A DNA stretch of 64,000 nucleotides, taken from contig JARLJQ010000040.1 of NCBI GenBank assembly GCA_031291115.1, positions 1 through 64,000 of the forward strand, written 5' to 3'. Below the pieces are notes generated by a model, which searched no databases, was not told where the DNA came from, and was given only the letters and a program-made list of their open reading frames with translations. Below, piece after piece: positions 23,000-28,048 of this stretch. The DNA is from Legionella sp. GTDB lineage: Bacteria > Pseudomonadota > Gammaproteobacteria > Legionellales > Legionellaceae. Position numbers and translations under genes: made by a program. Within the stretch, counting starts at the first letter, position 1. Each line of letters opens with the position of its first letter.

Positions 23000-23662
23000 G
23001 TGAATTGTATCGATATCAACAGAGAAAATAATATAAATCATCATTATCGATCTTGCAGCGAATTACGTAGATTAGCTTTGAGGATGCGACGCACTATTGG
23101 AAGTGTGGAAGATATTTCGGTGAATGCTTCTATTGTTGCAAGCCAAACAGGTAACAAAGCACGTGTATTTTTTGAAATCTCCAGTCAAATTGAAAAAACA
23201 TCGCGGAAGATGCATGCCAAAATCAATATGATCATTCATGTCACCAGTAAGTTAATTGAAACAGTCCTTGCATCGAAAATAGCACAATATCATATTGACA
23301 GTTATATGCTGGTACAAATACCCGAACACAATACGGCAAATTATGAGTTAGTGAAAACGGTCACTAAAAGATTGCAAAAGGAAGTGGCACTTGGCTTTGT
23401 TCAATTCAGAAATGAAATTAAAGCACTTGAAGTTCAATTTAATGCCTTTGATTTTTTAATTAATCGTATCTTTGTTGCACTTACCGCATTAAGAATAGAA
23501 GAAGAACTCTTTCGAGCCCAGCTTGAGATGGTTGCTGTGGGTTCATTAATCAAATCATTTGAAGAACTATTGAATGTCTTGTCAGAAGATTATGATGTGT
23601 TTCGAGATTATTTTATGATTTTTAAACACTCTAATAAATTAGTCTGGAATAGTGAGGAATAG
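23000..23662 (+). CDS. Degenerate chemoreceptor-like helical protein
   Basis: 220 residues, all-helical, with no membrane segment. Residues 41-70 (VNASIVASQTGNKARVFFEI and on to KTSRKM) align with the chemoreceptor hairpin tip, whose consensus is NASIEAARAGExGRGFAVVA followed by EVRxLAERS, but the invariant CheA/CheW-contacting residues are largely replaced. The rest resembles no domain I know. It may be a receptor-derived scaffold or regulator. Start is GTG with AAGG about eight bases upstream. It is the first gene of the operon, one base from the next gene. Confidence 0.6.
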   Translation: MNCIDINRENNINHHYRSCSELRRLALRMRRTIGSVEDISVNASIVASQTGNKARVFFEISSQIEKTSRKMHAKINMIIHVTSKLIETVLASKIAQYHIDSYMLVQIPEHNTANYELVKTVTKRLQKEVALGFVQFRNEIKALEVQFNAFDFLINRIFVALTALRIEEELFRAQLEMVAVGSLIKSFEELLNVLSEDYDVFRDYFMIFKHSNKLVWNSEE

Positions 23663-23663
23663 G

Positions 23664-24407
23664 ATGAAAAAAGTAGTTCTTTATGATGACGGTGATATTC
23701 AATGGACCGTTTTAGCTCGTGATCCTAATAAGCCTAAATCGGTTATTGATACGAATGAATACATTATACAGTCTGGTGATGAAGCTATATTGCTTGATCC
23801 AGGCGGCATGGAGATTTTCCCAAGTGTATTGTCGATGGTTTCTGAAGTGATTGATCTCAATTCCATCAAGGCATATATGTGTTCTCATCAAGACCCAGAT
23901 ATTATGTCTTCATTACCCATGTGGATGGAATTAACTCCCAATGCCACAGTGTATGTCTCCTGGTTGTGGAGTAGTTTTATTTCTCACTTTGGATATAAAT
24001 TTGCTGATAATTTATATGGCGTTCCTGATGAAGGCATGCAAATAAAATTGGGTGCTCATTATTTTCAATTGGTTCCGGCACATTACTTACATTCATCAGG
24101 AAATTTTCACTTATTTGATCCGGTATCGAAGATTCTTTTTAGTGGCGATGTGGGCGCTTCTTTATTACCTCCTGATGCTGATCTATTTGTTACTGATTTC
24201 GCGGCACACGCACCTTTCATGCAAAAATTTCATCAGCGCTGGATGCCTTCGAATTCGGCTAAAGAGGTCTGGTTAGCTCGAGTAAGGAAATTAGGGATTG
24301 AAATGATATGCCCACAACATGGCGCTATTTTCCGTGGCGATGATGTAGAACGCTTTTTTGATTGGTTCGATGATTTAGAGGTAGGGAAAATTCAACGTGT
24401 AACCTAG
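23664..24407 (+). CDS. Metallo-beta-lactamase-fold di-iron protein, ODP-like oxygen sensor
   Basis: 247 residues with the MBL-fold metal-ligand series of flavodiiron-type proteins without the flavodoxin domain: SHQDPD (His75, Asp77, Asp79), HSSGNFH (His143/149), FSGDVGA (Asp162) and CPQHG (His219). Proteins of this type (ODP, described from Treponema denticola) bind a di-iron centre, react with oxygen and signal to CheA through a partner receptor. I chose ATG 23664 (GAGG upstream) over a GTG at 23652. It lies between two receptor-like genes and upstream of cheA, which fits an oxygen or iron sensor of this pathway. Enzymatic hydrolysis is an alternative but the ligand set and context argue against it. 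Confidence 0.8.
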   Translation: MKKVVLYDDGDIQWTVLARDPNKPKSVIDTNEYIIQSGDEAILLDPGGMEIFPSVLSMVSEVIDLNSIKAYMCSHQDPDIMSSLPMWMELTPNATVYVSWLWSSFISHFGYKFADNLYGVPDEGMQIKLGAHYFQLVPAHYLHSSGNFHLFDPVSKILFSGDVGASLLPPDADLFVTDFAAHAPFMQKFHQRWMPSNSAKEVWLARVRKLGIEMICPQHGAIFRGDDVERFFDWFDDLEVGKIQRVT

Positions 24408-26623: not shown

Positions 26624-27062
26624 AAAAATTATAAAGCAATTTCAGTTTGAGCCTTCTGCTCTTGCTGACGAAAAGCAAACGTTTATTCAGTTTGCTATGT
26701 GTGGATCTCATTATGCTTTAGATATTCATTACGTTAGTGAGATTGTGGAGGTGCCGGTGATAACTCCTTATCCTGAGATCGTATCTGGATATTTAGGGAT
26801 TGTTAATTTGGGTGGTCAGATTATTCCGGTGATAGATTTTACGGGTAAATACACCAATGGGATAGAAACGTATGTAATACAGAATACTCATCTGTTATTG
26901 GTTACAGACTTTAGCGGGAATAGTTCTTTTGGGCTTATTATTGAGCGTCCTCGACGAGTAGAGGTCGCAAAAAAAATGCTTCTGTCTGCTACCGCTAATA
27001 TTAATGATCTGCCTGTGCGCTTATTGTCTGAAAGCGACTTTCATTTTAAGGAGATTGAGTGA
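26613..27062 (+). CDS. cheW: CheW-like adaptor
   Basis: 149 residues, a single CheW fold: FIQFAMCGSHYALDIHYVSE at the N-terminal beta-barrel, VSGYLGIVNLGGQIIPVIDF in the conserved middle, LLLVTDFSG near the end. It bridges CheA P5 and the receptor hairpin. It overlaps cheA by 11 bases and the cheV-like gene by 4, consistent with translational coupling. Confidence 0.85.
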   Translation: MQFEKIIKQFQFEPSALADEKQTFIQFAMCGSHYALDIHYVSEIVEVPVITPYPEIVSGYLGIVNLGGQIIPVIDFTGKYTNGIETYVIQNTHLLLVTDFSGNSSFGLIIERPRRVEVAKKMLLSATANINDLPVRLLSESDFHFKEIE

Positions 27063-28048
27063 TGGTTGCCAATGAACATGTTGCAGCAAATGAAAATGTT
27101 TTAATAGTTCCATGCCTTATCGTTGCTGATTCCCAGGCTATGTTAGTGGGTATTAATGCGCAAAAAATCATTGGTGTTGTTGATTATGAAAAAATTTCAT
27201 GTCTGCCCGCATCGCATCTACCCTTTATTGGATTGTATGATCATCATCAGGAAGCAGTACCGGTTATGGATATATCATGGGTATTGAAGCAACCGGATAT
27301 GGATCTGGTCCAGTCAACTTCCAGTACGCCCAATGCATCTTCATTATCGCTTGATACTGAATTTGCTCGGCATGTGGAACAGATGAAACGTTATAACCAA
27401 ACTAAAATAATCATTTGCCAGTTATTAAATATGGTTGTTGGCATCTTGGTTCAAGCCACTTACCGTATTGAGTCGCTTAAAAGCAGTCAGATTTTAAATG
27501 TTCCAAAAATTTTAGAAAATTCATCGTCTTGTATGTTAAATGGCTTGTTTCACTATAGAAATCAATTTCTCTATTTGCTCGATTTGGAGGGAATATTAGC
27601 GCGCCTCGGTTTACTTAATTTCCCTGAAGTTAATGAAATGCCAGATTCCTCAGTATCTAGCCCATTTGCTGGTAAAACGGTACTCGTTGTTGATGATGCA
27701 AAAATTTTCCGCTATCAACTATCTAGACTATTATCCGCACAAGGCATTCATTGCATTGAAGCTGTTGATGGGCAAGACGGCTACGAACAGTTTGAACGTT
27801 CACCTAATCAATTTGATTTAATTTTCACCGATTTTGAGATGCCTCGTATGAGTGGCTTGGAAATGGCAAGAAAGATACGTCGTGAAGTAAACAGCTCTGT
27901 TCCCATTGTTTTCAATTCGAGTATTTCAAATCCTGCGCTTATTTCTGAAATTTCAGCAGAGTATGGGTGCTTCCTGGTGAAGTTTCAACCAGAGGTGATT
28001 ATAAAAAAATTATACGAATTGTTAGGTTCAGCGGGACAAACACTATAA
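27059..28048 (+). CDS. CheV-like protein: CheW domain plus receiver
   Basis: 329 residues. Residues about 1-195 form a divergent CheW-like domain; residues about 205-325 are a receiver with all phosphorylation residues: VVDDAK (acidic pair), FTDFEMPRMSG (phospho-acceptor Asp), VFNSS (Ser/Thr switch) and LVKF (Lys). CheV proteins tune CheA activity through phosphorylation and can stand in for methylation adaptation. It is the only receiver in the cassette, so it is the only visible CheA phosphate acceptor. Start is GTG 27059 or ATG 27062; AGGAG fits either. Confidence 0.83.
   Translation: MMVANEHVAANENVLIVPCLIVADSQAMLVGINAQKIIGVVDYEKISCLPASHLPFIGLYDHHQEAVPVMDISWVLKQPDMDLVQSTSSTPNASSLSLDTEFARHVEQMKRYNQTKIIICQLLNMVVGILVQATYRIESLKSSQILNVPKILENSSSCMLNGLFHYRNQFLYLLDLEGILARLGLLNFPEVNEMPDSSVSSPFAGKTVLVVDDAKIFRYQLSRLLSAQGIHCIEAVDGQDGYEQFERSPNQFDLIFTDFEMPRMSGLEMARKIRREVNSSVPIVFNSSISNPALISEISAEYGCFLVKFQPEVIIKKLYELLGSAGQTL

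What the first reader, a model, noticed from the sequence alone, without database searches (positions are those of the whole stretch)
23000..28048. Receptor-less, methylation-less chemotaxis-type operon with a di-iron MBL sensor
Seen: six adjacent or overlapping genes encode a degenerate receptor-like protein, an MBL-fold protein with an ODP-like ligand set, a soluble MCP hairpin of 139 residues, a CheA lacking P2, CheW, and a CheW-receiver fusion. There is no CheR, CheB, CheY, CheZ or flagellar gene in the window. Known: L. pneumophila lacks chemotaxis genes, and ODP di-iron proteins signal oxygen to CheA in Treponema. Inference: a cytosolic oxygen/iron sensor splits into separate polypeptides and acts through CheA on CheV alone, possibly not controlling motility.
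Basis: partly seen in the sequence, partly recalled or inferred. Interest (0 to 1): 0.9.

Follow-up and report, generated by a model that had tools for sequence, protein, structure and literature searches.

The report
Oxygen-sensor chemotaxis operon in Legionella
A few Legionella species carry a compact chemotaxis-type switch built around an iron protein that probably senses oxygen, whose partner belongs to an odd family of receptor-like proteins that seem to pack two receptor tips into one chain; it looks like one of several chemotaxis systems in flagellated cells rather than a lone system unrelated to swimming.

Summary
The six genes are real and conserved. The MBL protein is a full ODP-family member with all six metal ligands. 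The operon, 77-91% identical per protein, recurs in 2 of 142 other Legionellaceae genomes. The wider inference fails: this genome also has a complete che cluster, a second CheY, flagellin genes and FliM. In both relatives a CheY lies in the divergent cassette next to the operon, so 'CheV alone, no motility' is not supported. New: gene 1 belongs to a family encoded directly upstream of ODP in 33 of 80 ODP loci examined (model partly circular). In 19 of 27 members both halves resemble MCP tips beyond 200 shuffles, and one member is modelled as four helices in one chain, perhaps a covalent mimic of an MCP dimer. In Legionella the second tip is unrecognisable and an adjacent 139-aa stub has an intact one. 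Best reading: ODP oxygen/iron input, mini-receptor plus tip stub, own P2-less CheA/CheW/CheV, output to CheY in trans (inferred). New variant of a known kind.

The parts
22880..22926 (+). probable operon promoter block: TTCAGA-18-TATACT (22884-22913) and, overlapping downstream, a sigma-S-like -10 GCTATACTTAA (22914-22924)
   Evidence: Block nearly identical in window, L016 and L017. The promoter scan lists the first site, but sites in the region are not above shuffles (17 vs 19.8). The pattern KCTAYACTYAA, chosen after seeing the site, matches once in the window, 0.27 expected, 23 of 100 shuffles with at least one. Sigma-S consensus recalled.
23000..23662 (+). gene 1, 220 aa: Legionella member of the ODP-linked tandem-hairpin mini-receptor family; second tip unrecognisable
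   Evidence: AlphaFold2 mean pLDDT 86.8, pTM 0.82, all-helical
23664..24407 (+). ODP, oxygen-binding di-iron protein (MBL fold); ligand positions H, D, D, H, D, H all present
   Evidence: PF19583 1.7e-75; PDB 6qrq 1.1e-70; invariant H71 D73 D75 H139 D158 H215 counted from codon 23676, five ODPs
24428..24847 (+). 139-aa soluble MCP hairpin (stub): intact signalling tip, no sensor domain found, no methylation-type motif
   Evidence: PF00015 7.7e-25; PDB MCP matches; motif scan
24816..24861 (.). 22-bp perfect inverted repeat across the stub stop codon; not found at the same place in the two relatives
24935..26623 (+). CheA, 562 aa: Hpt-HATPase-CheW, no P2 found
   Evidence: H48 in HTIKGGS invariant in the three homologues
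26613..27062 (+). CheW, 149 aa
27059..28048 (+). CheV-type CheW-receiver fusion, 329 aa; receiver keeps DD, D (FTDFEMP), S and K of the phosphorylation site by inspection
   Evidence: sequence

Best explanation
This is a dedicated oxygen/iron-sensing chemosensory unit. ODP binds O2 at a di-iron site (inferred from family and ligands). It signals through gene 1, a member of the tandem-hairpin mini-receptor family that commonly precedes ODP (gene pairing shown; contact inferred). Because gene 1 has lost recognisable CheA/CheW-contact tips, the adjacent MCP stub supplies an intact tip that forms the soluble signalling array with the operon's own CheA, CheW and CheV (inferred). CheA phosphorylates CheV as buffer or adaptation element in place of CheR/CheB, and phosphorylates a CheY supplied in trans: in relatives the CheY of the neighbouring vWA-TM-CheY cassette, in this genome the homologous cassette on C9. 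That CheY acts on FliM, giving an aerotaxis-like response (inferred). Shown: gene content, conservation, ligand positions, gene pairing, presence of CheY, FliM and flagellin. Not shown: any protein contact, O2 binding or phenotype.
For: ODP membership and ligands; six-gene order kept in G062 and G069 under purifying selection; gene-1 family members directly upstream of ODP in 33 of 80 loci; ODP tree puts the window ODP on the same side of a branch (SH-aLRT 99) as all 35 ODPs labelled with this partner and away from all 36 GGDEF-paired ones; MCP-tip similarity of both halves in the family; stub tip intact; CheY in the divergent cassette beside the operon in both relatives; the only CheR match of G062 lies in another cluster that I label Wsp-like, while G062 has flagellin and FliM; ODP and its sensorless MCP partner affect CheA in T. 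denticola (PMC7666581, passages).
Against: No direct evidence of contact between ODP, gene 1 and the stub. In this genome the CheY cassette lies on another contig beside the complete C9 che system, so that CheY could serve C9 only. In the relatives CheY is 2.9 kb from gene 1 and on the other strand. The CheY matches fall below NCBI's CheY cut-off (112-114 of 189 bits). Gene 1's own MCP signal is modest (N half 9.8 bits against 7.1 for the best of 200 shuffles; C half none). The gene-1 model shows one unbroken helix 6-104, so its first turn is not seen in the secondary structure. The fold search of the L066 model gave no match with E<=0.001 and only weak MCP matches. All three genomes encode at least one further MCP that might use this CheA.
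Confidence: 0.6

Rival explanations
1. Non-motility output: CheA acts only through CheV (or other targets), controlling something other than flagella.
For: No stand-alone CheY found in the window; CheV carries the only receiver in the operon; other Legionellaceae hold further non-standard che clusters; L. longbeachae has che genes without flagella (PMC2824747, passages).
Against: CheY in the neighbouring cassette of both relatives; all three genomes have flagellin and FliM.
Confidence: 0.2
2. Input branch only: ODP, gene 1 and stub feed oxygen information into the main C9 array, with the operon CheA as accessory.
For: C9 has a full che set and a PAS-PAS-MCP; in locus L051 a mini-receptor/ODP pair lies at the end of a CheA-MCP-CheW-CheR-CheB cluster.
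Against: G062 keeps the operon, yet its single CheR match lies in a Wsp-like cluster, so no C9-type CheR was found there; the operon has its own CheA, CheW and CheV, kept in three genomes.
Confidence: 0.15
3. Decaying operon: gene 1 is a broken receptor remnant and the stub a truncated MCP.
For: Gene 1 passes no family cut-off; its C half shows no MCP signal; the stub is shorter than any MCP class I recall.
Against: Same six open frames in three genomes; dN/dS of gene 1 0.088 and stub core 0.035; relatives of gene 1 beside ODP in other groups, a Leptospirales MAG included.
Confidence: 0.05

Closest known systems
Treponema denticola ODP (TDE2498) with sensorless MCP TDE2496 and CheA
   Same: ODP encoded with a soluble MCP homologue lacking TM and sensing modules; their deletion changes CheA ordering in the array (PMC7666581, passages)
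   Different: T. denticola has one CheA and membrane-bound arrays; here there is a dedicated CheA/CheW/CheV, a separate tip stub, and the gene before ODP belongs to the tandem-hairpin family
ODP operons with MCP or other signalling genes (Muok et al. 2019, as described in PMC7319448)
   Same: ODPs in operons with MCP genes in two gene orders, or with other signalling genes (passages)
   Different: Whether the two-tip form or dedicated che operons were noted there is unknown to me: Muok 2019 was not held
DosM, double-signalling-domain receptor of the V. cholerae F9 system
   Same: two signalling domains in one chain (PMC7534058, passages)
   Different: DosM is an extended rod with one signalling domain at each end; for the mini-receptor I infer from the helix limits an up-down bundle with both turns at the same end, not checked on coordinates
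L. longbeachae chemotaxis cluster llo3298-3303
   Same: che genes in Legionella (PMC2824747, passages)
   Different: includes CheR and two CheWs; no ODP in the passages I saw; I did not compare its sequences
ODP-GGDEF pairs (e.g. L. norrlandica, Zoogloea)
   Same: same ODP family
   Different: other side of the ODP tree, followed by a GGDEF gene

Membership tests
ODP (PF19583) | score over Pfam gathering cut-off | tested here: met
   253.6 vs 27.2 bits
ODP (PF19583) | six metal-ligand positions H-x-D-x-D, H, D, H | tested here: met
   invariant in 5 aligned ODPs; aligned with PDB 6qrq and 6qnm; role as ligands recalled from flavodiiron proteins
ODP (PF19583) | di-iron site that binds O2 | not testable with these tools
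   -
ODP (PF19583) | genetic coupling to a cytoplasmic receptor | tested here: met
   gene 1 before it and the MCP stub after it
MCP signalling domain (stub) | PF00015 over cut-off | tested here: met
   88.1 vs 34.6 bits
MCP signalling domain (stub) | methylation-type sites | tested here: not met
   no [ASTG]xx[EQ][EQ]xx[ASTG] match, while the C9 MCP has four (motif recalled)
MCP signalling domain (gene 1) | PF00015 over cut-off | tested here: not met
   no MCPsignal match at E<=1; with an MCP-tip model only the N half exceeds 200 shuffles (9.8 vs 7.1 bits)
Tandem-hairpin mini-receptor family (defined here) | encoded directly upstream of ODP and matching the family | tested here: met
   phmmer 2.4e-6 to the L066 member, best single stretch 7.6e-5, in a 32-sequence set; one base between gene 1 and the ODP ATG
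Tandem-hairpin mini-receptor family (defined here) | two MCP-tip-like halves | tested here: not met
   family: both halves in 19 of 27; window gene 1 C half -2.5 bits, 112 of 200 shuffles as high
CheA | Hpt, ATPase and CheW-like domains | tested here: met
CheA | P3 dimerisation domain (PF02895) | tested here: inconclusive
   not reported by Pfam at E<=1, although residues from about 80-160 to 560 align to other CheAs
Complete chemotaxis operon | CheR and CheB present | tested here: not met
   none found in window; present on C9
DosM-type receptor | signalling domains at opposite ends of a rod | tested here: inconclusive
   helix limits of the L066 model (4-50, 53-104, 111-164, 168-203) suggest both turns at one end; coordinates not inspected

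The most novel reading that the evidence does not exclude
The partner that precedes ODP in many proteobacteria is a previously unrecognised receptor architecture: a single chain of about 200 residues holding two degenerate MCP hairpins in tandem, folding as a four-helix bundle that imitates an MCP dimer (a covalent pseudo-dimer), so that ODP may gate an asymmetric, monomeric receptor. In Legionella this protein has given up kinase contact, which passed to a separate 139-aa tip protein: a receptor split into a sensor adaptor and a kinase-contact part, with its own CheA.
Probability: 0.45. Interest if true: 0.78.

Novelty: new variant of a known kind. Interest (0 to 1): 0.6.

Why it matters
How ODP talks to a receptor and kinase is open: in T. 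denticola no obvious position for ODP in the array could be assigned (PMC7666581, passages). A two-gene ODP/tandem-hairpin cassette of about 450 residues in many Gammaproteobacteria would be a minimal system for that question, and a single-chain pseudo-dimer would allow tests of asymmetry in receptor signalling that homodimers hide. The Legionella operon would be a natural case of a receptor divided into separate parts.

Tried and rejected
Considered and dropped: (1) 'No chemotaxis elsewhere in this genome': contradicted by CheW, CheR, flagellin and FliM searches. (2) Recent import shown by composition: operon G+C 38.6% against 39.0% for the window, no signal; gene 1 alone 34.2%. (3) Direct search for gene 1 with the three Legionella rows: 1 of 369 class genomes, the window's own; homology came only through the ODP neighbours. 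(4) A short CheA as a peculiarity of this operon: CheAs of 528-542 aa occur in seven other fetched Legionellaceae loci; I did not test those for P2. (5) Foldseek of the L066 model: 0 matches at E<=0.001; the top ranks are mostly designed bundles (5vju, 6z0c, 8d9p; TMq 0.51-0.61; four-helix nature recalled), MCP chain 2ch7 comes at E 0.45. This fits a single-chain bundle and says nothing for MCP ancestry. A comparison with an MCP dimer was not possible. A fold search of the gene-1 model was tried and did not run. (6) A first dN/dS of gene 1 was misaligned by one codon and is discarded; one search replaces it. (7) Paper searches, in an open-licence library, showed in their listings no description of two-tip ODP partners; Muok 2019 could not be read and may already contain it.

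Limits of the counts: the ODP scan kept 80 of 276 confirmed relatives. The upstream-partner count used a model of 22 proteins, 19 of them from those loci, so it is partly circular. At 50 bits or more 32 of 80 pass; L065 is added because its second ODP has the partner, 119 bases upstream. L038 (36 bits) and L068 (48 bits, an ordinary MCP) do not pass, several GGDEF-type loci have ordinary MCPs upstream at 32-42 bits, and L050 is cut off at the contig end. The half-by-half test used 27 proteins cut at mid-length: the 22 of A5 plus L034, L036, L037, L051, L060. In one search the N-half profile scored 15 of 28 C halves above the best decoy (8.4 bits); 13, both Legionella rows among them, did not. 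Of six family members scanned with Pfam, MCPsignal passed its cut-off in two and stayed below it in four.
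Full report
What is there. Six ORFs on the + strand at 23000-28048: gene 1 (220 aa), ODP (start most likely ATG 23664, one base after the gene-1 stop), a 139-aa MCP hairpin (stub), CheA (562 aa), CheW (149 aa) and a CheV-type CheW-receiver protein (329 aa). Pfam reports ODP (PF19583, 253.6 bits), MCPsignal in the stub (88.1 bits), Hpt/HATPase/CheW in CheA without P2, CheW, and CheW plus receiver. The ODP matches the solved oxygen-binding di-iron proteins 6qrq (1.1e-70) and 6qnm (9.1e-57) over nearly its whole length, and H71, D73, D75, H139, D158, H215 are invariant among the five ODPs aligned (ligand roles recalled from flavodiiron proteins). 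The window lies in a draft genome of 2.6 Mb, 82% complete, in the same genus as two genomes whose contig lengths equal those of L. rowbothamii LLAP6 and L. norrlandica, and it carries a Legionella sRNA match.

Conservation. Of 143 Legionellaceae genomes, 6 have an ODP-like match: this one, G062 (90%), G069 (91%; contig as long as that of L. rowbothamii, L033), two followed by a GGDEF gene (G065, contig as long as L099 of L. norrlandica, and G047, as L100) and a distant MBL protein in G083 (22%). G062 and G069 hold all six genes in the same order, 77-91% identical. dN/dS against G069 is 0.088 for gene 1, 0.046 for ODP, 0.035 for the stub core, 0.045 for CheA P3-P5 and 0.076 for CheW. A promoter-like block upstream of gene 1 is nearly identical in the three genomes. 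It holds a TTCAGA-18-TATACT site, no commoner in the region than in shuffles, and beside it GCTATACTTAA, which resembles a sigma-S -10 (recalled; pattern chosen after seeing it, 1 match in the window, 0.27 expected).

The rest of the genome. The same genome has, on contig C9, CheA (808 aa, two CheW stretches), CheW, a PAS-PAS-MCP, CheY, CheB (by inspection), CheR and CheX, followed by a vWA protein, a small protein with an apparent membrane segment (by inspection) and a second CheY. It has two flagellin-domain genes, one of them near fliS (Pfam) and a fliD-like gene (by inspection), and FliM beginning MTDKNVLSQEEIDALL, which fits the CheY-binding motif as I recall it. In G062 and G069 a cassette vWA - membrane protein - CheY is transcribed divergently from gene 1, CheY being the far gene, about 2.9 kb away; its CheY is closest to NCBI's CheY model (112-114 bits, below the curated 189). 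G062 has one CheR match, in a cluster I label Wsp-like, and it has flagellin and FliM, so there the ODP operon plus that CheY is a plausible motility system. G000 has 2 MCPsignal matches, G062 3 and G069 4, the stub included, so other receptors for this CheA cannot be excluded.

What gene 1 is. A scan of genome contigs with ODP gave 276 relatives; the best 80 were kept and examined. Among the 35 highest-ranked loci (L033-L067, mostly Gammaproteobacteria by record title, ODP 47-91% identical) a protein of about 180-260 aa is usually encoded directly upstream, often overlapping ODP. Outside its Legionella ortholog, gene 1 matches the L066 member best (2.4e-6 for the whole, 7.6e-5 for the best stretch, in a set of 32). 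With a family model, 32 of 80 loci have such a protein upstream of the best ODP at 50 bits or more, plus L065 for its second ODP (model partly trained on these loci). The ODP tree (83 rows) has, on the two sides of a supported division, a 39-row set (35 labelled with this partner, 4 others; SH-aLRT 99), which holds the window ODP, and a 44-row set with all 36 GGDEF-paired ODPs (99). The tree is a quick one, warns of long branches, and the exact place of the Legionella rows is open.

Two tips in one chain. The aligned family shows an MCP-tip-like motif in each half. Profiles of the two halves, made without the Legionella rows, match the C9 MCP at 48.5 and 27.4 bits; the N profile matches C halves at up to 19.2 bits, 15 of 28 above the best decoy (8.4), the rest not. 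One member (L041) has two Pfam MCPsignal stretches; of six scanned, two pass the Pfam cut-off. As a test independent of the family, a model from 34 ordinary MCP tips found in the fetched loci scored N halves above all 200 shuffles in 27 of 27 proteins and C halves in 19 of 27. The 8 C halves that fail include all three Legionella proteins (-2.5, -4.6, -3.9 bits), so in Legionella the second tip is not recognisable, and the N half is only modestly above shuffles in the window protein (9.8 against 7.1). AlphaFold2 gives the L066 member as four helices, 4-50, 53-104, 111-164, 168-203 (mean pLDDT 89.5, pTM 0.79), and gene 1 as helices 6-104, 112-172, 178-214 (86.8, 0.82). The breaks of the L066 model at 51-52 and 165-167 fall at the two tip motifs, with the loop 105-110 between them in chain order; from this I infer an up-down bundle with both tips at one end, without having inspected coordinates. 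Foldseek of that model finds no match at E<=0.001; the top ranks are mostly designed bundles at TM 0.51-0.61. The nearest PDB sequences to the family profile are MCPs, first 3g6b, 3.6e-15 (a soluble Thermotoga receptor as I recall). Ordinary MCPs, not tandem ones, adjoin ODP in some more distant loci (L068, L093, L098; by inspection), as described for T. denticola (PMC7666581, passages).

How it may work. ODP changes state with O2 or iron (family knowledge). In T. denticola deletion of ODP and its sensorless MCP changes CheA ordering, with no obvious position for ODP in the array. By analogy ODP would act on gene 1. Gene 1 lacks an intact kinase-contact tip while the stub next to it has one (LLALNASIEAARAGQEGRGFAIVAHEV), hence the proposal that kinase contact passed to the stub. 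No CheR/CheB in the operon and no methylation-type motif suggest that adaptation, if any, uses CheV. Output to CheY in trans is the simplest reading given the relatives and FliM. Every step after gene content and homology is inference.

Novelty. ODP next to MCPs is known (PMC7319448, passages), che genes in Legionella are known (PMC2824747, passages), and two signalling domains in one receptor are known for DosM (PMC7534058, passages). Not found in the listings of my searches (open-licence library only): the two-tip ODP partner, or an ODP operon with its own CheA, CheW, CheV and a separate tip. Muok 2019 was not readable. Verdict: new variant of a known kind; interest 0.6, and 0.78 if the single-chain pseudo-dimer is real.

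Noticed in passing
window 24816-24861: A perfect 22-bp inverted repeat (2-nt loop) spans the stop codon of the stub gene in the window and was not found in the two relatives; it could alter stub/CheA expression or be an assembly fold-back.
   Followed up: partly
window 17328-22594: Two tandem proteins (801 and 818 aa), 75% identical, the second with HEAT-repeat matches; a Legionella sRNA match (LPR69) lies between them at 19898-19978.
   Followed up: no
window 251-646: Two 5S rRNA genes in a row after the 23S end.
   Followed up: no
L016 3137-6076; L017 5933-8862; L007 17814-19622 with L021 619-1684: A vWA protein - membrane protein - CheY cassette accompanies either the ODP operon (G062, G069) or the CheX end of the C9 che cluster (G000); its role is unknown.
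   Followed up: partly
L065 4343-8729: One Methylomicrobium locus holds both ODP types: one followed by a GGDEF gene and one preceded by the mini-receptor.
   Followed up: partly
L051 78-8708: A proteobacterial MAG has a CheA-MCP-CheW-CheR-CheB cluster ending in a mini-receptor and ODP.
   Followed up: partly
L173, L174 and L176-L180: Legionellaceae carry further che clusters with short CheAs: one kind with CheC/CheD-like genes (by inspection) and a receiver-GGDEF gene, another with an MCP of about 1040 aa and a 215-aa gene after CheA.
   Followed up: partly
window 59978-61513: Cytochrome bd oxidase subunit I gene in the same window, an oxygen-related gene about 32 kb away.
   Followed up: no
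window 28257-29852: Alliinase-type PLP enzyme directly downstream of the operon; no match in the fetched G062 and G069 loci.
   Followed up: no
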